From Candidatus Gastranaerophilales bacterium (GTDB taxonomy: Bacteria > Cyanobacteriota > Vampirovibrionia > Gastranaerophilales > Gastranaerophilaceae): DNA of 64,000 nucleotides. Shown here in pieces: positions 325 through 40,126 of this stretch. The stretch lies in NCBI GenBank assembly GCA_944324395.1, contig CALUWC010000006.1:62001-126000 (forward strand). The letters are read 5' to 3'. The notes below the pieces were generated by a model. That model had not been told where the DNA came from, made no database searches, and saw only the letters and a program-made list of their open reading frames with translations. Positions within the stretch are counted from its first letter, which is position 1. Every line of letters begins with the position of its first letter. Made by a program: the position numbers and the translations under genes.

Positions 325-346
325 AAACTTATTTTATATAAGTTTT
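324..346. terminator. Weak AT-rich hairpin between convergent genes
   Basis: Inverted repeat aaaactta (324-331) / taagtttt (339-346) with a 7-base loop. It sits exactly where the genes ending at 324 and 329 converge. It has no G+C clamp, so it would be a weak terminator. Confidence 0.3.
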
Positions 347-817
347 AACAAACTTTTTAGCCCAGTTGATTAAATCAGGGTATTTATCAAGATGAAGTCC
401 TCTTGCAATCCACTCGGAAATATTTTCAGACTGAGTGCCGATATGTTTGTATTCTTTATAAATAAAAGAATACATGCCAGTTCTGTCAGCACCCTGTTTG
501 CAATGGATATGGAGCTTTCCGTTCCGGGCAGATATTTTATCTGCAACCGACAGAAAATCAAAAACTTTTTGCTCCTGCGGATACTTTGAAATTGAAGGAA
601 TACTATGATATTTCATTCCAAGCGATCTCACAAGTTCAGCCTCATCAAAATCAATATCAGGAACAGACATTGTCCTGAAATTTACAATATCTGTAACTCC
701 ATGATTTTTGAGCCATACAAAATCATCTTTCTTTGGCTGGGCGGAACGAGATACATAATTATCTATTTTTGCATAATTTTCAGGAATTCCCGTAAAACAA
801 ATATTCTGAACTTTCAT
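329..817 (-). CDS. Protein tyrosine / dual-specificity phosphatase-like protein with N-terminal FTG motif
   Basis: A 162-residue protein with the cysteine-phosphatase signature HC(X5)RTG: HCKQGADRTG, with nucleophile Cys106 and phosphate-binding Arg112. The upstream stretch 'YVSRSAQPKKDDFVWLK' is typical of the atypical dual-specificity family (SiW14/DSP type), so it should remove phosphate from protein tyrosines or small phospho-ligands. There is no signal peptide. The extreme N-terminus reads MKVQNICFTG and carries the FTG motif seen in several other proteins here. No Shine-Dalgarno precedes the ATG at 817; instead TATTAT lies 6 bases upstream, suggesting a leaderless mRNA. The substrate is unknown. 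Confidence 0.8.
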   Translation of the reverse strand: MKVQNICFTGIPENYAKIDNYVSRSAQPKKDDFVWLKNHGVTDIVNFRTMSVPDIDFDEAELVRSLGMKYHSIPSISKYPQEQKVFDFLSVADKISARNGKLHIHCKQGADRTGMYSFIYKEYKHIGTQSENISEWIARGLHLDKYPDLINWAKKFVKTYIK

Positions 818-819
818 AG

Positions 820-1470
820 ATGAATAATAGCATGCTAAAAACCCTAAACTTAAATTTCAACTGTTCAAAGTTACAAAATGTAACCTCAAAAAATAAAATA
901 ACGCAATTTTCTGCTAAAAAAATACTTTATAAAACTAAGGGGATAAATACAGAGGAAAAAATTATGCCGGACATAAATACAAAAGTTTCAGCCTGGACAT
1001 TCCAGCAGTGCGATGGTACAAATTTTTCAACAGCAGGAATTGAAGCGGGAGTAAATATCGGAAAAGGAAGTTTAGGCGGTTATGCCGGAGTCGGAACATC
1101 CTTTACAGAAGGTTCAACAGGTGCCGTTATTGATGTAAAGGGTTCAATGCCTTATGGAAATTCTGCATTTTCAGGAGGATTCAGAGTAAGACACAATCTC
1201 AATCCGAATTCTCAATCTGTTCAATTCAGGGTGCAGCCTTGCACTGTAACCATTCCTATTACAGATAAAACAAGCATTTATACAACACCCTATGTTGCAA
1301 CAAAAGTAACTTACGGCAAAAGCGGAGCTGATACGACAGTGGGAAACTTTACCGGGATTTCAACAAAAATCGGGAAAGCAAGCGTATTTGTTGAAGGACA
1401 AATTTATGATGTAAGCAAAATTGACCCTTCAACCACAAGTGTTAATGTAGGAGTATCCATACCGTTGTAA
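820..1470 (+). CDS. Hypothetical beta-strand-rich protein, possibly a small beta-barrel
   Basis: A 216-residue protein not recognised as any named family. The C-terminal 170 residues alternate Gly, Ser and Thr with hydrophobic residues in repeated strands (for example AGVNIGKGSLGGYAGVGTSF) and end in a hydrophobic strand (VGVSIPL), as in small beta-barrels. The start is uncertain. ATG 820 gives an N-terminal polar lead ending in TQFSAKK, reminiscent of the FTG-type leads. ATG 964 has a good Shine-Dalgarno (agagga, 8 bases away) and would make a 168-residue protein. The 820 start lies 2 bases from the divergent phosphatase gene and overlaps its putative promoter. No signal peptide is seen from either start. 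Confidence 0.6.
   Translation: MNNSMLKTLNLNFNCSKLQNVTSKNKITQFSAKKILYKTKGINTEEKIMPDINTKVSAWTFQQCDGTNFSTAGIEAGVNIGKGSLGGYAGVGTSFTEGSTGAVIDVKGSMPYGNSAFSGGFRVRHNLNPNSQSVQFRVQPCTVTIPITDKTSIYTTPYVATKVTYGKSGADTTVGNFTGISTKIGKASVFVEGQIYDVSKIDPSTTSVNVGVSIPL
824..829 (-). promoter_or_regulatory. -10 element, probably leaderless start of the phosphatase-like gene
   Basis: On the minus strand TATTAT lies exactly 6 bases before the ATG at 817. A poor -35 candidate (TTAAGT, plus-strand 848-853) lies 18 bases upstream. No ribosome-binding site is present. The spacing matches the stronger examples listed for radA and mnmE. Confidence 0.4.
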
Positions 1471-1500
1471 GAAAATATAATAATTGTCTTTTAAATATAT

Positions 1501-2292
1501 TTAATAATCTATTCCTTTAAATTCCTTTTGATAAGCCCAGGCGGAATGATTATGAATACTTTCCATAGCTTCACAGTCAACCTCAAAAGAATTTATAACA
1601 GGATTATTACGCAGTTTCACAACAACCTCTCTTAAAACATCCTCAACAAACCTCGGATTATCCCAGGCATGCTCTGTCACGAATTTTTCATCCTGACGTT
1701 TTAATAAAGGATACACCGGACAAGACGCACAGGATTCAATCAAATCTATCAAATCTTCCAGCCAGACATGCTCTTTTTCCTCATAAGAAACCTTAACGGA
1801 AATTATTGCCCTCTGATTATGAGCCCCGTTATCGGATATCTCCTTTGAGCAGGGACACAATGTTGTTACGGGAACTTTTACTCCCAGTATAAATTTGTAA
1901 CTGTCATCATCCATTATCCCCTCAAAAGAACAATCATAGCACATTGGAGCCGAAAATCCTGTTACCGGAGCCTTTTTATCAACAAAATACTTAAAATTAA
2001 ATTCCAATTCTCCGCTTTGTGCATGAAGTTTTTTTATAATTTTTTCAAGACAGCCCTTAATATCAACACCCAAAAGATTTTTTGTCCGCCATTCGTTTAG
2101 AACTTCGACAAACCTGCTCATATGGGTTCCTTTATAATCTCTGGGCAAGGAAACACAAGTTCTGGCGGTTGCATATACAACCTTGTCCGACTTATTTTTC
2201 CTCTGAATTATAAGCGGAAGCTCTATATGCTTTATTCCTACTTTTTGAATATCTACATTTCTGGTATCTTGAGTGTTTTGTACGTCTTTCAT
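1501..2292 (-). CDS. folE2: GTP cyclohydrolase FolE2 (type IB)
   Basis: A 263-residue protein matching the COG1469/GCYH-IB family along its length: N-terminal 'DVQNTQDTRNVDIQKVGIK', the central 'GFSAPMCYDCSFEG' and 'VPVTTLCPCSKEISDNGAHNQR' segments, and the C-terminal AMESIHNHSAWAY. The enzyme converts GTP to 7,8-dihydroneopterin triphosphate, the first step of folate and of queuosine precursor synthesis. The type IB form can use metals other than zinc. It is the second gene after mazG (23-base gap), and both are nucleotide-handling enzymes. A queuosine gene (queC) lies at 36.5 kb. No strong ribosome-binding site precedes the ATG. Confidence 0.95.
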   Translation of the reverse strand: MKDVQNTQDTRNVDIQKVGIKHIELPLIIQRKNKSDKVVYATARTCVSLPRDYKGTHMSRFVEVLNEWRTKNLLGVDIKGCLEKIIKKLHAQSGELEFNFKYFVDKKAPVTGFSAPMCYDCSFEGIMDDDSYKFILGVKVPVTTLCPCSKEISDNGAHNQRAIISVKVSYEEKEHVWLEDLIDLIESCASCPVYPLLKRQDEKFVTEHAWDNPRFVEDVLREVVVKLRNNPVINSFEVDCEAMESIHNHSAWAYQKEFKGIDY

Positions 2293-2315
2293 ATTTAAAT
2301 CAAACCCGTTATATA

Positions 2316-3092
2316 TTATTTACCGCTTGTTATTTCTTTTTTAGCCTGTCTCCACAATTTGTCAAACTCTTCAAACGAATATTCATTCAAAGGTTTAACC
2401 GCAAGTTCTTCCATTTTTCTAAAACGCTTTTCAAACTTTTTATTAGCCTTTAACAAAGCCTGCTCTGCATCAATCTTATTCCATCTTGCAAGATTAACAG
2501 TTGCAAATAAAATATCACCGAACTCCTCTTCCATGTGAGCTTTATTACCTTCTCGCTCAGCTTGTTTAAATTCTTCAAACTCTGAATATATACAATCATA
2601 CAAAGAATCTTCATTTGGCCACTCAAATCCTGTTTTCACAGCCTTTTTAGAAATTTTCTGGGCTGAAATCAAAGCCGCCTGACTTCTTGAAATCCCATCC
2701 ATTGCTGATTTTCTATGAGTTTTTTCTTCAGCTTTAAGTTTTTCCCAGGCATCAACGACCCCATCCGGGGAATCAATCTTTTCATCCCCAAAGACATGAG
2801 GATGACGATGAATCAACTTTTCTTTTAATTCTTTTGCTACATCTTCTATATCAAAAGCACCTTCTTCTTTTGCAATTTGAGAATGCAGTAATACCTGCAA
2901 TAAAACATCGCCAAGTTCTTCTCTCAGGTGAGGCATATCATTATCATCAATTGCATCAACAGCCTCGTAAGCTTCTTCTATCATATTTGGACGTAAAGAA
3001 GAATGAGTCTGTTCTCTATCCCAAGGACACCCGTCAGGAGCCCTTAGCCGCCTTATAACTTCTATCAATTCTTCCAGATTTTTATAATTCAT
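2316..3092 (-). CDS. mazG: Nucleoside triphosphate pyrophosphohydrolase MazG
   Basis: A 258-residue protein of normal length for two-domain MazG. The first domain has 'RLRAPDGCPWDREQTHSSLRP' followed by the metal-binding EEAYEA...EELGD helix pair. The second repeats the pattern (EFEEF...EEEFGD). It hydrolyses nucleoside triphosphates to monophosphate and pyrophosphate as house-cleaning. It is first in an operon with folE2. There is no Shine-Dalgarno; an extended -10 (TGTTAAAAT) lies 6 bases before the ATG, so the message is probably leaderless. Confidence 0.95.
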   Translation of the reverse strand: MNYKNLEELIEVIRRLRAPDGCPWDREQTHSSLRPNMIEEAYEAVDAIDDNDMPHLREELGDVLLQVLLHSQIAKEEGAFDIEDVAKELKEKLIHRHPHVFGDEKIDSPDGVVDAWEKLKAEEKTHRKSAMDGISRSQAALISAQKISKKAVKTGFEWPNEDSLYDCIYSEFEEFKQAEREGNKAHMEEEFGDILFATVNLARWNKIDAEQALLKANKKFEKRFRKMEELAVKPLNEYSFEEFDKLWRQAKKEITSGK

Positions 3093-3098
3093 ATTAGT

Positions 3099-3107
3099 AT
3101 TTTAACA
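3099..3107 (-). promoter_or_regulatory. Extended -10 promoter of mazG, leaderless spacing
   Basis: The minus strand reads TGTTAAAAT, a TG-N-TAAAAT extended -10. Its hexamer ends 6 bases before the mazG ATG at 3092. No convincing -35 is present, as expected when an extended -10 compensates. No ribosome-binding site lies between it and the ATG. Confidence 0.45.
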
Positions 3108-3188
3108 CAAATCATTCAAAAGGTGGATTTAATATCTGCATACTATGATAGACTAGGTACGTGGATAATCCAGAAAGAGGTTTAATAT

Positions 3189-3719
3189 ATGTCAGCAATC
3201 GAAAAAATTAATCAATTAAGCCATCGTATATTTAATACGAGCGTAACAGAACAGAACGTTGCCAGATCAAGCAACCCTTTTGCCGCTTCAAATTTCCAAA
3301 AAAATATCTTAACTGAAGATGTTTTTGAATCAAGCAATGAAAAAGAAAAAAACAAAAAAGATGTCAGCTTTACAGGTAATTTGACAGCCAGCTCAAAAAG
3401 AATTTACTCAACATTTGTAGGTTCATTAACAGATTTTGGCAACAAATTCTATGAAGGTATTGAAGCTATCAAAGCTTTCGGTTCTAAAATGAAAGATGGA
3501 ATCGTAACTGCCTGGAACAAAATTAATGAATTAGGAAACAAAGAGGTTTCATTTGACGGAGCAAAAGAAGTTTTGACTAGAGATATTACTTCATTCTTCG
3601 TAAGCGGACGGAACAGAGAAATTGCTAAAATGTCCAAAATGGACCCTCACACAGAAATTAAACCAATGTTAACAGAAAGCTTAGCTGCATTAGAAGCAGA
3701 CATGGCAGCAGCTGCATAA
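3189..3719 (+). CDS. Hypothetical protein with FTG motif, first gene of a two-gene operon
   Basis: A 176-residue protein of unknown family. Residues 1-58 are polar and Asn/Ser/Lys-rich. The motif DVSFTGN follows (FTG at 61-63), and the rest is a helical domain rich in Lys/Glu and small residues, ending in EADMAAAA. There is no signal peptide or membrane segment. Shine-Dalgarno agagg lies about 8 bases before ATG 3189. The next gene starts 11 bases after the stop with its own Shine-Dalgarno (aaggagg), so the two are cotranscribed. The polar lead plus FTG recurs in the proteins at 329, 38403 and 39278. Confidence 0.8.
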   Translation: MSAIEKINQLSHRIFNTSVTEQNVARSSNPFAASNFQKNILTEDVFESSNEKEKNKKDVSFTGNLTASSKRIYSTFVGSLTDFGNKFYEGIEAIKAFGSKMKDGIVTAWNKINELGNKEVSFDGAKEVLTRDITSFFVSGRNREIAKMSKMDPHTEIKPMLTESLAALEADMAAAA

Positions 3720-6888: not shown

Positions 6889-8667
6889 CTATACAGTTTT
6901 TGGTGGATTTTGAGTAAGATTCTCCGCTTTAGGGTTTCCCTGCGGAGAATCTGTATTGGCTTGTGATTTTTGATTTTCTCTATATCTTTGGAGCATTTCA
7001 TCAGCCCAAACTCCGATTTTATTAACAACTAAAGATGATAAAGTACCTATAACCAAAGATTTTGTACCGGCATACAACTTAGCATTACAATACAGAGAAA
7101 TACCGATACCGGCAAGAGCAGGAATACCATACTTCAAGGAGATTGACATTCTTTGGTCTTTATCGTCTGATTTGCCGAGCTGATAACCCAATACTCCTAA
7201 AGATCCAAGGATTGTTAAAATATCAGTAGGGGCAGAACCCAGAACTAAATCTCTTAATTTGCTGACAAATTCTTCAGTTTCAAGTCTTATGGATTTATCT
7301 AATGATTTTATTGTTCCTTTATATGCTTTTGCTAGATTTGTATATTCATCTTCGGGGAGAAGTTTTCTGTAAATATCCAAAATATCTTCAACCTGGCCTT
7401 GTTTAAAATATAAGAATTTGTCTTTCAATTCTGACAGGCTTATAAGTATATCATTTGCGACTTCTTTACTCATTGATTTTTCAGATACAGCTTTCCAAAT
7501 TTCTGCAGACAAATAATTTATGTCCCTGAGAATATTATCCTTAAGTTCAAAATCCCCCGGCTTCTTCGCATAACGTTTAAGATTAGCTCTTATATTGCGA
7601 AGTTTGCTGATTTTATCAACATCTTTATAACTTATCTGTTCTGTCATTTTCATAATAAGTTCATCAGAGTCTTTTGCCATATCAGCCAAAGAATAAGACA
7701 ACTCTAACCTGTTAGAATGAACAACTTTTTGAATTGCTTTCTTTTCTTTCACAACTGCAGATTCAGCTATAAAGGTTCTCCACAAATCTTTTGTCCAGAA
7801 AACTTTCCAGTTTGAAAATATAGATTTTAAACCTTCAACTGATTTTTTGAATTTATAATACCTTGCCTGAAGAGGTTTTTCACTAAAATGACTGTCATAA
7901 CTTTCAGCAAGTTTTTTATTCATTTCGTTAACCTGTGCAAGCCATTGAGCTTTTGTCTTTCTTATCCCGTTTATTTCTACAACTTCAAAAGAATTACCTC
8001 TCATAACAGATTCCGAAGCTTCTACAGCTAACGCTCTGGTTGTTTTCATTCGGGACATAGTATTTTTATAGGCATTAACAACAGACTGCCGTCCTATTTT
8101 TTCAAACATTCTTGTTATTGAATCGTGAATAGGCCCTGTAAATTTGCCGGTAAAACGGTTAAACATCAATTCTTTAAATGCCAGATCTTTTATGGTTGCA
8201 AAGTTATTTACAGCTTCAAATTTATTTAGAAAATAATCCAGCCCTTTTACCATATAAATATACATTCTATTCATGGTAGAAACTTCGCCTTTATTATCTA
8301 ATTTTGAAGACTGAACTTTTTTATCAAAGAAATCTCTTAATTTTTGAAAATTTTTAGATAATCCTTTAGTTCCGCCTTTCAACAAGAAAAATATAGCAGC
8401 AGCCGTTAAAACGGTAACACTGGCAATTGAGATACCGATAAGCTTGGTATTATTGGTTTGACGGGCTTCATCAGGAGTGATAAATTTTAACTTTTGCTCC
8501 TTGTCATTGACTATTTGCTCTTCTTTATTATCTTCATTCGATATCGTAACCGTATCCGGCTGAGAATTTTGAACAAGCATCCAGTACTCATTCGGTTTAT
8601 TTTTAAATGTAACTGAACCGAATGAATTAATTTTACCGGATTCAATTGTCTGAATTGAATTTGTCAT
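6889..8667 (-). CDS. Large hypothetical membrane protein with C-terminal D-x-D-x-R hairpin
   Basis: A 592-residue protein of unknown family. The polar N-terminus holds INSFGSVTFKNKP (about residues 13-25), a variant of the FTG lead. A hydrophobic segment (ISIASVTVLTAAAIFFLL, about 77-94) comes next, then about 380 residues of charged helix, a hydrophobic stretch, the loop DDKDQR (501-506), and more hydrophobic helices (GIPALAGIGISLY, LVIGTLSSLVV). The tail is polar and Asn/Pro-rich. The hydrophobic-DxDxR-hydrophobic unit is also found in the proteins at 38403 and 39278. No clear Shine-Dalgarno. It is transcribed alone. Confidence 0.75.
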   Translation of the reverse strand: MTNSIQTIESGKINSFGSVTFKNKPNEYWMLVQNSQPDTVTISNEDNKEEQIVNDKEQKLKFITPDEARQTNNTKLIGISIASVTVLTAAAIFFLLKGGTKGLSKNFQKLRDFFDKKVQSSKLDNKGEVSTMNRMYIYMVKGLDYFLNKFEAVNNFATIKDLAFKELMFNRFTGKFTGPIHDSITRMFEKIGRQSVVNAYKNTMSRMKTTRALAVEASESVMRGNSFEVVEINGIRKTKAQWLAQVNEMNKKLAESYDSHFSEKPLQARYYKFKKSVEGLKSIFSNWKVFWTKDLWRTFIAESAVVKEKKAIQKVVHSNRLELSYSLADMAKDSDELIMKMTEQISYKDVDKISKLRNIRANLKRYAKKPGDFELKDNILRDINYLSAEIWKAVSEKSMSKEVANDILISLSELKDKFLYFKQGQVEDILDIYRKLLPEDEYTNLAKAYKGTIKSLDKSIRLETEEFVSKLRDLVLGSAPTDILTILGSLGVLGYQLGKSDDKDQRMSISLKYGIPALAGIGISLYCNAKLYAGTKSLVIGTLSSLVVNKIGVWADEMLQRYRENQKSQANTDSPQGNPKAENLTQNPPKTV

Positions 8668-13703: not shown

Positions 13704-14870
13704 TTAAATGTAATTTAACGGATTTGTAGGTTTACCATTTACACGAACCTCAAAGTGACAGTGAGGACCTGTACTGTATCCCGTTGAGCCTTCTCTGCCA
13801 ACAGGCTGACCTTTTTTTACAAACTGCCCGTTATGAACATTGATTGCTGACATGTGACCATATAAGGTTGTTATAGGTTTACCGTTTATGACACCATGAT
13901 CCAAAATTACGACTTTGCCGTATCCGCCGTACCAGCCTGAGTATATAACTTTCCCGTCATTAGAAGCTTTGATAGCTCCGCCGTTAGGTCCGGCAATATC
14001 AATACCTGAATGGAAAATTCTGCTCTTGAATATCGGGTGAACTCTCCAGCCGAAAGGAGAAGTAATCCTTCCTGAAATAGGATAAATAAATCCTGTTGAA
14101 GAAACCTTAACCTGAGATGAACCGGATGAAGCATTCTTTCTGGTCAACTGTTCAATCATATTTTGAATACTTGCAGATTGTCTTGCCAACTCTTTTTCGG
14201 AACGCTCATAATAACTTTTATCCTTTTGAAGTCTCACAATCATGGATTTATTTTCAGCAATTGAACCTTGAATAGTTGCCCTCTGATTGTTAATATCCCT
14301 TATTGAAGCTTCAACCATGCGTTTTTGATTTTCAACTTGAGTTTTCAACATGGCAATCTCGTTTGCTTTCTCTTTAACCTGCTGCATTCTTCTGTAATCA
14401 TCCTGGATAACAATTTTTTCAAAATAAAACATATCCATAAGATTATTTAAATCAGTCGCAGATAAAATCAATTCAAACATGCCCGTTCTTTGGTGCTTAT
14501 AAACCTGACGGATACGAGCCTTCATCGCAGCATCAATACTTTTAAATTCTTCTACGGCAGCAGAAAGCTGGCGTTCCATCGTTGTCAAATTTGAAACAAG
14601 AGCATTGTAACGTTGAGTAGTTGTTCTAAGCTCTGATTGTGCTTTTTCAAGTTTCTGCTGGTTATTACTTAGCTTGTTTCTTTCTGAACGAAGTCGCAAA
14701 TCAGCCTGCTTTTTCTTTTGCAAGAAGTAATTACGCTTGCTGTTTGTCTGATTCAACTTCTGAGTCAGAGAAGACTTTGTAGCAGAAAGTACAGGTCCCC
14801 CGCTCACACATAAAGCCCCGCACAATATCCAGCTTATAAGTAAATATTTTAAAAACTTTTTATCTTCCAT
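13704..14870 (-). CDS. EnvC-like murein hydrolase activator, coiled coil plus M23 peptidase domain
   Basis: A 388-residue exported protein. An N-terminal hydrophobic signal or anchor (about 8-30) is followed by about 220 residues of coiled coil (QKLNQTNSKRNYFLQKKKQ onward), then a LytM/M23 domain at about 270-388. M23 ligands are present: HSGIDIAGPNG, the YGHMS segment and GPHCHFEVR. The zinc set H...D, HxH looks complete, so it may be an active endopeptidase and not only an activator. It acts on periplasmic peptidoglycan during division or remodelling. Second gene of the envelope operon; lptD follows 17 bases downstream. Confidence 0.92.
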   Translation of the reverse strand: MEDKKFLKYLLISWILCGALCVSGGPVLSATKSSLTQKLNQTNSKRNYFLQKKKQADLRLRSERNKLSNNQQKLEKAQSELRTTTQRYNALVSNLTTMERQLSAAVEEFKSIDAAMKARIRQVYKHQRTGMFELILSATDLNNLMDMFYFEKIVIQDDYRRMQQVKEKANEIAMLKTQVENQKRMVEASIRDINNQRATIQGSIAENKSMIVRLQKDKSYYERSEKELARQSASIQNMIEQLTRKNASSGSSQVKVSSTGFIYPISGRITSPFGWRVHPIFKSRIFHSGIDIAGPNGGAIKASNDGKVIYSGWYGGYGKVVILDHGVINGKPITTLYGHMSAINVHNGQFVKKGQPVGREGSTGYSTGPHCHFEVRVNGKPTNPLNYI

Positions 14871-14877
14871 TTTTATA

Positions 14878-14982
14878 TTATTTTACAAATAACGGCAACA
14901 TCATCAGCCCTACAGACCAGGCTATAAAAGTAACTGCAATTATGGCAAATATTACCTTGCGATGTTTTCTGAAAAATTCCAT
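14878..14982 (-). CDS. 34-residue single-pass membrane protein
   Basis: A short ORF with an excellent Shine-Dalgarno (aggggag, 6 bases before the ATG at 14982) and a stop 7 bases before the M23 gene. It encodes a positively charged start (MEFFRKHRKV), one hydrophobic helix (IFAIIAVTFIAWSVGLMML) and PLFVK. The beginning resembles the N-terminal anchor of PpiD/SurA-type foldases, but no foldase follows, so it is either a genuine small membrane protein or the remnant of one. Position and ribosome site make it the first gene of the envelope operon. Confidence 0.65.
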   Translation of the reverse strand: MEFFRKHRKVIFAIIAVTFIAWSVGLMMLPLFVK

Positions 14983-15130
14983 AAATTCTCCCCTTATATG
15001 ATAGACATTGTACTATCAAAAAAAAGTTTGTGCAAGAATGTATCATATATTCTTTACGTAATAAAATAAAGCATCCGATAAAATTGGAACCCGTTAAATA
15101 TGTTACAAAAAAATAATGTTTGTAAAAAAT

Positions 15131-15154
15131 GAACTTTTTTAGTATAAAATCGTT
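15131..15154 (+). promoter_or_regulatory. Putative ECF-sigma promoter of the anti-sigma/sigma operon
   Basis: GAAC at 15131-15134, 16 bases, then CGTT at 15151-15154. This matches the GAAC-N16-CGT pattern of many ECF (sigma-E/sigma-W type) promoters. It lies 24 bases before the anti-sigma ATG at 15178, which would make the operon autoregulated. Inferred from pattern only. Confidence 0.5.
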
Positions 15155-15177
15155 ATAAGGGTATAGAGGTTGATAAA

Positions 15178-15522
15178 ATGAACGATAAATGCACAAAATA
15201 TGAAGCTCTCTTTACTTTTAGAGATGAAAACGAGTTAAACGAACATATTCAAAACTGCCCTGATTGCAGACTTGAACACGAAAAAATGACTCGAGTTTCT
15301 GAATTAATACAGGAAGCCAAACCTTACTATATGGAAAAACGCAAAAACTCAGTTAAAGTAAGAGCGGCTTGTGCTTTATTCATGCTTATGGTCTGCGGAA
15401 CCACTCTCGGTGTGGTAAACTTCAATACAGATATCTCTGACACCCTTAAATACGGTACAACTTTAAGTGCAGAAGATTTAAATTTTCCTGTAGATTCTTA
15501 CGGGTTAATTTCTCTGGAATAG
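15178..15522 (+). CDS. Zinc-finger anti-sigma factor, membrane-anchored
   Basis: A 114-residue protein with the zf-HC2 signature in its N-terminal half (HIQNCPDC, an H-X3-C-X2-C zinc site). A linker and one transmembrane helix (about residues 62-80, ACALFMLMVCGTTLGVV) follow, with a short outer tail. This is the layout of ZAS-domain anti-sigma factors, which hold an ECF sigma factor at the membrane. It lies directly before the ECF gene (9-base gap), the reverse of the more common sigma-first order. Shine-Dalgarno gaggt precedes the ATG. The outer tail is short (about 35 residues), leaving little room for a sensor domain. Confidence 0.85.
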   Translation: MNDKCTKYEALFTFRDENELNEHIQNCPDCRLEHEKMTRVSELIQEAKPYYMEKRKNSVKVRAACALFMLMVCGTTLGVVNFNTDISDTLKYGTTLSAEDLNFPVDSYGLISLE

Positions 15523-15531
15523 AGAAGGTAA

Positions 15532-16029
15532 ATGAATTTTAAAGAAGTAATCAATTCTAACAAACAAAATATCAAAAATATTATAAGACTGATTACCAAA
15601 GAAGATAATGAAGATTTGGAACAAGAGGTCTATTTAAAAATCTGGAAAAACTCCGATAAATACAAAGAAAACGGTTCTTTAAAAAGCTGGATAAGTTCTA
15701 TTGCAAAAAATACCTCTCTTGATTATCTAAAGTCTTCATATCATAAAGTTTCACAAACTTCGACTTCTGATGAATTTGTTTTATATAATATTACAGATAA
15801 AAAAACTACACCGGATTCAAAAGCAGTACAAAAAGAACGCCAGAAAAAAATTGTTAATGCTATTAACCGGCTGAAACCTAAATTTAAAGAAGTTATAATA
15901 ATGTGCGAAATCAACGGATATTCATACGAAGAATGTGCTCAAAGATTAAAATGTCCTTTAGGCACTATAAAATCAAGATTATATAACGCTAAAAAAGAAT
16001 TAGCGGAAGAATTGAAAGATTTATTATAA
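15532..16029 (+). CDS. ECF-type RNA polymerase sigma factor
   Basis: A 165-residue sigma-70 family protein with only regions 2 and 4. Region 2 contains NEDLEQEVYLKIW and the -10-recognition stretch SLKSWISSIAKNTSLDYL. Region 4 holds the helix-turn-helix 'YSYEECAQRLKCPLGTIKSR'. It directs RNA polymerase to stress promoters when released by the preceding anti-sigma. With the Spy/CpxP-like gene downstream it probably controls an envelope-stress response. A candidate cognate promoter lies at 15131-15154. Confidence 0.93.
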   Translation: MNFKEVINSNKQNIKNIIRLITKEDNEDLEQEVYLKIWKNSDKYKENGSLKSWISSIAKNTSLDYLKSSYHKVSQTSTSDEFVLYNITDKKTTPDSKAVQKERQKKIVNAINRLKPKFKEVIIMCEINGYSYEECAQRLKCPLGTIKSRLYNAKKELAEELKDLL

Positions 16030-38402: not shown

Positions 38403-39278
38403 ATGAATATAGACTCAATTAAAAATTATCCCGCAGGCACTCTGGCCAAGCAAAGACATAAGGGCATGCTTGAGTATAGACAGAAGAGTGCGGGTTTGTG
38501 CGAGAGCAAAAGTGTGAAGAAGAATAATAACTACAACGGCAGTTTTACGGGTTTAAACGTAGCTGCCGTTGCTGGTTCTATAAACACTGAAAAAAGTGCA
38601 ACAATGCTTGATAAAATTCTTACTCTTTGTGACAAGCACACAGTTATTGCTCAAAACTTAGTTGCCCTATTCTTAGCAGCCGGCTTAAGACCTCTGGCAA
38701 TCATGTCACTGCCCGGACAGAAAAAAGACAAAGATGATAAAATTTACGCTTCCGGACACTCAATAGCATCAGGGCTTATCGGATTTGCTTTCTCAAGTAT
38801 TGTAATGTATCCGCTGGGAAGAGCCGTAGAAAAAACTAAAGGAGCCGTCAAAGATGCTAATGCTGCTATTGAATTAATGAAAGACAGCAGTAAATTAACA
38901 AAAGAACAAATGGAAGCAATTGACAGTTTGAAGAAAAAATACAAACTCAATAACATTCTTGACATTGAAAATGTAAAAATCTTCAAAAAACTCAAAGAAA
39001 CATACAATGTAAAAACACTCGGAGATCTTGAACATTCTAAAGCCTTCAAGAACGTAACCAAAATTCTTGATATGGCTCCGGATGTATTTATCTTTGGTGT
39101 ATTAAAAGCAATGCTTACAGTTGCGTTAATACCGCCGATTTTAAAATATGTATTCGGAATTGAAAAGAAAAAAGCTCCTCAGACCCCGAAACCTGAGGTA
39201 AGTAGTAATAATACGACAACACCGCCTCCGGCTATTCCTAAACCGGAAATAGAAAAATTTGCAGGAGGGCTAAAATAA
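38403..39278 (+). CDS. Hypothetical membrane protein with FTG lead and DxDxK hairpin (tandem copy 1)
   Basis: A 291-residue protein of unknown family. The polar, Lys/Asn-rich N-terminus (1-47) ends in GSFTG (FTG 48-50). A hydrophobic stretch (NLVALFLAAGLRPLAIMSL) leads to the loop KKDKDDK (109-113 core) and a second hydrophobic segment (IASGLIGFAFSSIVM). Then come a charged helical region and a third hydrophobic segment (FIFGVLKAMLTVALIPPIL). The tail is Pro/Thr-rich. The next gene begins on the stop codon (ATG overlaps TAATG) and shares the plan, so the two look like ancient tandem duplicates. Confidence 0.82.
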   Translation: MNIDSIKNYPAGTLAKQRHKGMLEYRQKSAGLCESKSVKKNNNYNGSFTGLNVAAVAGSINTEKSATMLDKILTLCDKHTVIAQNLVALFLAAGLRPLAIMSLPGQKKDKDDKIYASGHSIASGLIGFAFSSIVMYPLGRAVEKTKGAVKDANAAIELMKDSSKLTKEQMEAIDSLKKKYKLNNILDIENVKIFKKLKETYNVKTLGDLEHSKAFKNVTKILDMAPDVFIFGVLKAMLTVALIPPILKYVFGIEKKKAPQTPKPEVSSNNTTTPPPAIPKPEIEKFAGGLK

Positions 39279-40126
39279 TGAATATCACATTACAAACAAA
39301 TAATTTTAACTCTCAATACAAATACAATACCTATAACACAAAATCAAAGAGAAATAATTTACCTTTATATTCTCAGCAAAGTTTTACGGGTATTGAAGAT
39401 ATTCCTGCAAAATCAAATCTTTTAAATCCGTTTAAAAGAGCATTCGACAAATTCACAACTTGGCTTTCAAACAATTACACCTCTAAATTGTATACTTCAA
39501 AGCTGGCAAAATTTCTAGCCGGACATACTGAAAAATTGGATAGTGTAGTTGACCACATGCAAGTTGCAGGTTCAATAATTATCTCAGGAATGTACATGAC
39601 GCAAACTTTGAGAAACCAGCAGTTAGATGAAGATAGAAGAAGGACTCTTGCGGTTAACCAGGGATTAACATTCCTATTATCCACTATTGGTTCTTATACT
39701 ATCGACAGAAGCCTCGACAACTGGTGGGAAAAAGTTACTGCAAAATATGCCCAAAAGCAAACCGGAGATGATAAAATTCTCGAAAAGATAACAAATATTA
39801 ACAATGATATAATCAAAAAAGCAGAAGAAGAGTTTAAAATGCCGTGGAAGAAAATTCCTAAAAAGCAAAAACCTAAACTCATGACAACATTAAAATATGT
39901 TGAAGATAATCTGCCAAACACATCACTGGAATCAAAACTAAAAGGTATGGGAGTATTGAAAAAACTGATTGTATTCGGTACTGTCTACAGATTCTTGGCT
40001 CCGGTTGCAGTTACTCCGTTTGCAACAATGATTGGAAACAAACTTGCAAGCGGCAATAAAAAACAAGATGATGTACAAAATAAAGTTGTACACACAAAAG
40101 AAACCATACAAAAAGAAGAAAAATAA
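39278..40126 (+). CDS. Hypothetical membrane protein with FTG lead and DxDxR hairpin (tandem copy 2)
   Basis: A 282-residue protein of unknown family. The Asn/Tyr-rich lead ends in QQSFTGIED (FTG 36-38). A hydrophobic helix (QVAGSIIISGMYMTQTL) leads into QLDEDRRR (117-121 core) and then GLTFLLSTIGSYTI. A charged helical region and a C-terminal hydrophobic segment (FGTVYRFLAPVAVTPFATMI) follow. Organisation matches the preceding gene segment by segment although identity is low. The two genes overlap and share one terminator. Confidence 0.82.
   Translation: MNITLQTNNFNSQYKYNTYNTKSKRNNLPLYSQQSFTGIEDIPAKSNLLNPFKRAFDKFTTWLSNNYTSKLYTSKLAKFLAGHTEKLDSVVDHMQVAGSIIISGMYMTQTLRNQQLDEDRRRTLAVNQGLTFLLSTIGSYTIDRSLDNWWEKVTAKYAQKQTGDDKILEKITNINNDIIKKAEEEFKMPWKKIPKKQKPKLMTTLKYVEDNLPNTSLESKLKGMGVLKKLIVFGTVYRFLAPVAVTPFATMIGNKLASGNKKQDDVQNKVVHTKETIQKEEK

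What the first reader, a model, noticed from the sequence alone, without database searches (positions are those of the whole stretch)
3189..3719. Recurrent N-terminal FTG motif in unrelated proteins
Four proteins carry an exact Phe-Thr-Gly after a short polar or basic lead: DVSFTGN in the 3189 gene (61-63), NICFTG in the phosphatase-like protein (8-10), GSFTG at 38403 (48-50) and QQSFTG at 39278 (36-38). The 6889 protein has SVTFKN and the 820 protein TQFSAK at comparable places. The downstream domains differ. A shared short lead on different proteins suggests a targeting, anchoring or partner-binding tag, perhaps for a compartment or surface. I know of no described motif of this kind. A FTG tripeptide occurs elsewhere by chance (as in the 45284 protein), so the lead and position matter.
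Basis: partly seen in the sequence, partly recalled or inferred. Interest (0 to 1): 0.78.

Follow-up and report, generated by a model that had tools for sequence, protein, structure and literature searches.

The report
N-terminal F-x-G tag on unrelated proteins
In a group of gut bacteria related to cyanobacteria, many otherwise unrelated proteins begin with a floppy leader ending in a short conserved motif (such as V-S-F-T-G); it looks like a delivery label, possibly for a protein-export machine resembling a flagellum without a filament, but what reads it is unknown.

Summary
The genome belongs to the Gastranaerophilales (non-photosynthetic gut Cyanobacteria). In 1,489 proteins outside the window the tag occurs 53 times in the first 80 residues against 26.9 in shuffled N-termini (0/300 reach it), and at background rate elsewhere. 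E. coli and a genome of another order show no excess. In 30 orthologues of the 39278 protein the tag Phe is the only invariant leader residue besides Met1. It sits on about 40 unrelated families, mostly without Pfam domains (8/45 against 15/20 untagged). Phosphatase homologues carry either a Sec-like signal or the tag. I read it as an N-terminal targeting signal. The best candidate machine is a divergent flagellum-like type III export apparatus kept by relatives that nearly all lack flagellin and hook-sized proteins. That link is circumstantial, and the window's own assembly lacks two core genes of it. The motif is well supported; its function is not shown.

The parts
3189..3719 (+). Tagged protein of the finding, 176 aa, helical, no Pfam match; long conserved leader
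   Evidence: orthologues in nearly all genomes of the genus
3363..3377 (+). Tag VSFTG (residues 59-63) of the 3189 protein
   Evidence: kept as [VI][SNT]FTG in most of 29 aligned orthologues, lost in a few
329..817 (-). Tagged DSP/PTP-type phosphatase, 162 aa
   Evidence: Pfam PF22785, PF22741, PF13350 above cut-off
788..802 (-). Tag ICFTG (residues 6-10) of the phosphatase
   Evidence: orthologues ISFQG, VSFCG
38403..39278 (+). Tagged protein with hydrophobic segments, 291 aa; adjacent to the next tagged gene
38538..38552 (+). Tag GSFTG (residues 46-50)
   Evidence: orthologues SFTG, VSFGS, VTFGS
39278..40126 (+). Tagged helical protein with hydrophobic segments, 282 aa
39377..39391 (+). Tag QSFTG (residues 34-38); Phe36 invariant in 30 orthologues
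6889..8667 (-). Probable tagged protein, 592 aa, with a hydrophobic segment about 50 residues after the tag
   Evidence: no Pfam match above cut-off
8599..8613 (-). Tag form VTFKN (residues 19-23)
820..1470 (+). Possible tagged protein, 216 aa, Gly-rich
   Evidence: no Pfam match
901..915 (+). Possible tag form TQFSA (residues 28-32); outside the core pattern
   Evidence: orthologues not examined

Best explanation
A lineage-specific N-terminal targeting tag: a disordered polar leader (often Met-Lys-Ile/Val..., N/Q/S/P-rich) ending in [LIVP]-[STNA]-F-[TKQGN]-[GSA]. It marks proteins that lack a Sec signal for a dedicated destination. SHOWN: the motif exceeds chance in N-termini only, is conserved in place while the leader diverges, and sits on about 40 unrelated families. 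INFERRED: it is a sorting signal. INFERRED, weaker: what reads it is the divergent flagellum-like type III export apparatus (FliE, FliF, FliH, FlhA/SctV; FliM/N, FliO, P, Q, R; rod proteins) that the genus keeps while nearly all its genomes lack flagellin and hook-sized proteins, so that tagged proteins would be its cargo.
For: N-terminal excess over shuffles, background rate in the middle and C-terminus, none in E. coli or the f8 sample. Invariant Phe in diverging leaders. Leader predicted disordered in 39278. Phosphatase homologues have either a Sec-like N-terminus (L127, L131, L132, L137) or a tag leader (L112-L114, L120, L123, L125, L128, L130, L138). Tagged proteins are mostly orphans, 8/45 families with Pfam against 15/20 untagged; the rest include phosphatase, ankyrin, HEAT, CheR-like and M3-like proteins. 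The second FlhA/SctV type is present in almost every genome of the family, and the genus lacks flagellin and listed hook-sized PF06429 proteins. The sampled gate-less genome G058 (f8) shows no tag excess.
Against: No experiment. The own assembly has no FliF match and no full FlhA/SctV, though this may be an assembly gap. Known type III signals have no shared sequence motif (general knowledge). Some tagged proteins look like ordinary cytoplasmic enzymes (GH77, DHH) or have several hydrophobic segments. The f8 sample is small (96 proteins), and f3 and f6 samples show no excess despite having the apparatus. The distance from the start varies from 5 to 68 residues.
Confidence: 0.33

Rival explanations
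1. An intracellular docking motif: a cytoplasmic or membrane-bound adaptor binds the Phe-containing peptide and gathers tagged enzymes and membrane proteins at one site, with no export.
For: Short motif with one invariant Phe in a disordered tail is typical of peptide docking; several tagged proteins have hydrophobic segments or are enzymes usually cytoplasmic.
Against: Such motifs usually also occur in C-terminal tails and linkers; here the middle and C-terminal rates are at background. The Sec-like alternative in the phosphatase family points outward.
Confidence: 0.3
2. Another export or envelope-anchoring route (not type III) reads the tag, for example an unknown inner-membrane translocase or anchoring protein.
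For: Same N-terminal restriction and Sec-like alternative; does not need the export genes missing from the own assembly.
Against: No candidate machine was found; only a contractile-sheath family (absent) and type III families were searched.
Confidence: 0.17
3. A processing site: a protease trims the leader at or near Phe-x-Gly.
For: Leader diverges freely up to the motif; small residue at +2.
Against: No cleavage data and no candidate protease; many leaders are only 2-12 residues long, leaving little to remove.
Confidence: 0.1
4. Chance plus composition: Asn/Ser/Phe-rich disordered N-termini of AT-rich genes, with inheritance inside a few families.
For: FTG alone is only modestly enriched with many chance hits. 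A few 3189 orthologues lost it. Small f3 and f6 samples show no excess.
Against: Shuffles that keep each N-terminus's composition give about half the observed count or less. Phe is invariant amid diverging leaders. About 40 families not linked by BLAST.
Confidence: 0.08

Closest known systems
Type III secretion N-terminal signals (flagellar and injectisome substrates)
   Same: N-terminal, uncleaved, disordered, polar leaders on unrelated proteins without a Sec signal
   Different: Known signals have no common sequence motif (general knowledge); here a Phe-centred pentapeptide is shared. Export not shown.
N-terminal host-targeting or sorting motifs of eukaryotic parasites (PEXEL, RXLR)
   Same: A short motif downstream of the start, on many unrelated lineage-specific proteins
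   Different: Those follow a Sec signal peptide and have other sequences; here there is no Sec signal. General knowledge, not tested.
Encapsulation and docking peptides (microcompartments, encapsulins)
   Same: Short peptide on a disordered tail of unrelated enzymes
   Different: Far more and more varied carriers here; no shell protein searched for or found.
Buchnera flagellar basal bodies without filaments (PMC8109811)
   Same: Basal-body and type III export genes retained by a host-associated lineage without a working flagellum
   Different: Here it is a second, divergent export set found across the order beside true flagella in other families.

Membership tests
Type III secretion substrates | N-terminal disordered signal without a Sec signal peptide | tested here: met
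   Leader of 39278 pLDDT about 30; polar leads (the list was filtered for this)
Type III secretion substrates | Exported through a type III gate | not testable with these tools
   No export data
Type III secretion substrates | Gate present in the same genome | tested here: inconclusive
   FliP, Q, R present, FliF and full FlhA/SctV not found in the own assembly; present in nearly all relatives
Sec/lipoprotein signal peptides | Positive start, hydrophobic core, cleavage site | tested here: not met
   Core-motif leads were defined as lacking a hydrophobic stretch, and the excess lies there; sequences
Flagellum (the second export set in this genus) | Flagellin and hook | tested here: not met
   No flagellin in the genus except one hit in G014, a bin with 6% contamination; PF06429 hits listed for the genus are rod-sized, 147-242 aa
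Non-flagellar type III secretion (injectisome) | SctV, SctJ, SctQ-R-S-T scoring above their models' cut-offs | tested here: not met
   SctV 589 vs 692, SctJ 48 vs 162, SctQ 45 vs 101, SctS 55 vs 76.5, SctT 119 vs 163 bits, SctR 194 vs 209; FlhA, FliF, FliN, FliQ and FliR models are also below cut-off, FliE and FliP above
Non-flagellar type III secretion (injectisome) | Secretin and needle | not tested
   -

The most novel reading that the evidence does not exclude
A previously undescribed type III-like secretion system, related to the flagellum and spread across the Gastranaerophilales, exports dozens of lineage-specific proteins that are recognised by a readable N-terminal sequence code rather than by the motif-free signals known elsewhere.
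Probability: 0.22. Interest if true: 0.9.

Novelty: new variant of a known kind. Interest (0 to 1): 0.64.

Why it matters
If the tag is a targeting code, it gives at once a list of proteins, mostly of unknown function, that this common and largely uncultured gut order sends to one place. If that place is outside the cell through a flagellum-like exporter, it would explain why non-motile members keep 'incomplete' flagellar genes, and would name candidate molecules by which gut melainabacteria act on their surroundings. My few searches of the held open-access literature found no description of the motif.

Tried and rejected
FTG as the definition: too narrow and noisy. First-pass tripeptide enrichment did not show it, hydrophobic tripeptides being more prominent in N-termini; restricting to polar leads helped. 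A common downstream domain: rejected (33 tagged proteins share 8% mean column identity). Contractile injection sheath PF04984: absent. Phage origin of 3189: no match in phage records. Structure: 3189 model unusable (pLDDT 53); 39278 gave no significant PDB match. The known flagellar gate-recognition idea (Phe followed four residues on by a hydrophobic residue, from memory) does not fit: position +4 is not consistently hydrophobic. Leader composition is partly circular, because the tag list was filtered for polar, non-acidic leads.

Full report
WHAT WAS CHECKED. The window is G000:C6:62001-126000 of a 1.89-Mb, 25-contig genome with about 34% G+C. Of eight relatives found in a named collection, two are titled 'Candidatus Melainabacteria' and 'Candidatus Gastranaerophilales', the rest only 'bacterium'. 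I therefore place it in the Gastranaerophilales, the non-photosynthetic gut relatives of Cyanobacteria.

IS IT MORE THAN CHANCE. I read two further 400-kb samples of the same genome, one 400-kb sample of a same-genus genome (G006), some 50 kb more of contig C9 of the own genome, and samples of six other families. The general form [LIVP][STNA]F[TKQGNRE][GSA] occurs 53 times against 26.9 shuffled (0/300). Its rate is 0.44 per 1,000 residues in the first 80, 0.17 in the middle and 0.14 in the last 80. E. coli K-12 (169 proteins) gives 0 against 2.9, and a genome of another order (f8, 96 proteins) 2 against 2.1. Restricted to polar N-terminal leads the excess is sharper: 16 against 5.2 in the own genome outside the window, 10 against 2.5 in G006, 4 against 0.6 in f2, 3 against 0.6 in f4, 4 against 1.2 in f7, and nothing in the small f3, f6 and f8 samples. 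The form was generalised after seeing orthologue N-termini and hits in these samples, so these are not fully blind tests.

WHAT THE TAG IS. Orthologues show which positions matter. In 30 sequences of the 39278 family the leader changes length and sequence, yet one Phe is always there: QSFTG, PSFKG, PAFKG, PSFQG, PSFTA, PTFTA, PSFNA, PNFGS, TSFGK, PVFNG, TSFEG, PQFTG. Besides Met1 it is the only invariant residue before the folded part. The 38403 family alternates SFTG, VSFGS and VTFGS. The 3189 family keeps VSFTG, ISFTG, VNFTG or VTFTG in most members and loses it in a few (L033, L044, L046, L047). Over 41 families selected for a polar leader, position -2 is V/L/I/P, -1 is S/T/N/A, +1 mostly T/K/G and +2 G/S/N/A (these classes were partly imposed by the search pattern). 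Leaders are rich in N, Q, S, P and poor in acidic and hydrophobic residues (partly imposed); the third residue is I or V in 20 of 41 (not imposed). AlphaFold gives the leader of 39278 pLDDT of about 30. Examples outside the window: L208:6630 (...KPQNN-INFTG), L183:14348 (...NNGSK-VAFQA), L193:15316 (...TAPSR-VAFKA), L200:3460 (...NYNST-VNFTG), L219:15311 (...YCVKNT-PTFGA), L176:10590 (...NRYL-VSFTG). By eye I count about 23 in a little under 1 Mb of the own genome, so roughly 40-50 per genome (inference).

WHO CARRIES IT. BLAST clustering gives 61 groups, of which about 40 look like clean tags (my judgement). Only 8 of 45 scanned families have a convincing Pfam domain, against 15 of 20 randomly chosen untagged proteins. 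The annotated ones are a DSP/PTP-type phosphatase, a GH77-like protein whose sequence ends in a hydrophobic stretch, HEAT and ankyrin repeat proteins, a CheR-like methyltransferase, an M3/M32-like metallopeptidase, a DHH protein and DUF6829. Several others have hydrophobic segments downstream of the tag. In the phosphatase family, homologues have either a hydrophobic, Sec-like N-terminus (L127, L131, L132, L137) or a tag leader (L123, L125, L128, L130, L138 and part of the own clade); some have neither. That is the best single hint that the tag does the work of an export signal.

A CANDIDATE READER. The genome has a FliM/N-like, FliO, FliP, extended FliQ (162 aa) and FliR cluster at G000:C9:74.5-78.3 kb. 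Across the order there are two full FlhA/SctV types. One scores about 850-890 bits against FHIPEP and sits in a classical FliP-Q-R-FlhB-FlhA operon (G045 L238, G046 L241). The second scores about 670-735 bits and sits with FliE, FliF, an unassigned 335-aa protein and FliH (G006 L234, G009 L236, G018 L244), in G046 also with rod-like proteins. The genus of the window keeps only the second type, has no flagellin (one hit, in a bin with 6% contamination) and, among the matches listed, only rod-sized PF06429 proteins. The components match flagellar and non-flagellar type III models alike and mostly fall below both cut-offs. Earlier work noted that some Gastranaerophilales have only a subset of flagellar genes, read as loss of function (PMC4040986; see also PMC5877343). 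Its retention in nearly all of dozens of genomes of this family argues for a use. Gate-less families f8 and f13 exist, and the f8 sample shows no tag excess, but that sample is small.

THE WEAK POINT. The window's own assembly has no FliF match and no full FlhA/SctV, only a protein with the C-terminal half of FHIPEP (C4:54260) and a partial one (C7:90421-91014). In the close relative G018 these genes lie on a block of about 26 kb. Of its 27 predicted proteins only three have matches, all distant, in the roughly 1 Mb I read of the own genome, and conserved order breaks off inside a response-regulator gene at L195:12000. A missing piece of assembly and a true deletion are both possible; the second would count against the export reading for this strain.

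VERDICT. Motif: real, found in several families of the order, new in the sources searched. Function: an N-terminal targeting signal is more likely than not. Type III-like export is the leading specific guess at about one in three, with intracellular docking close behind.

Noticed in passing
G000:C9:74500-78300 (L223:14531-18290); L236:11072-16992; L234:16070-19971; L244:14033-19932: A divergent flagellum-like type III export gene set kept by a genus in which nearly all genomes lack flagellin and listed hook-sized proteins; a second set beside the true flagellar one in other families of the order.
   Followed up: partly
G000:C4:54260-55294 (in L016, ORF 14227-15708), one similar protein in most relatives: A protein of about 495 aa that matches only the C-terminal (cytoplasmic) half of FlhA/SctV, present besides the full-length gene across the order.
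   Followed up: no
38403-39278 and some orthologues of 39278-40126 (e.g. L070-L073, L079, L080): Several proteins of these two tagged families also end in a similar short C-terminus (KPExxKFxxx-like: PEIEKFAGGLK, PEMAKFLGK, PEISKFISR), a possible second tag.
   Followed up: no
L195:12000 (G000:C5, about 32 kb): Conserved gene order with G018 stops inside a response-regulator gene and different sequence follows: a rearrangement or a misassembly of the window's genome.
   Followed up: partly
3189-3719, residues about 117-122: A second motif-like stretch (EVSFDG) inside the helical part of the 3189 protein; not conserved in its orthologues.
   Followed up: partly
L219:15311-19215, L176:8042-13583, L217:930-7475, window 329-3719: Tagged genes tend to lie in small clusters (three or four within 4-7 kb), suggesting accessory islands; not tested statistically.
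   Followed up: no
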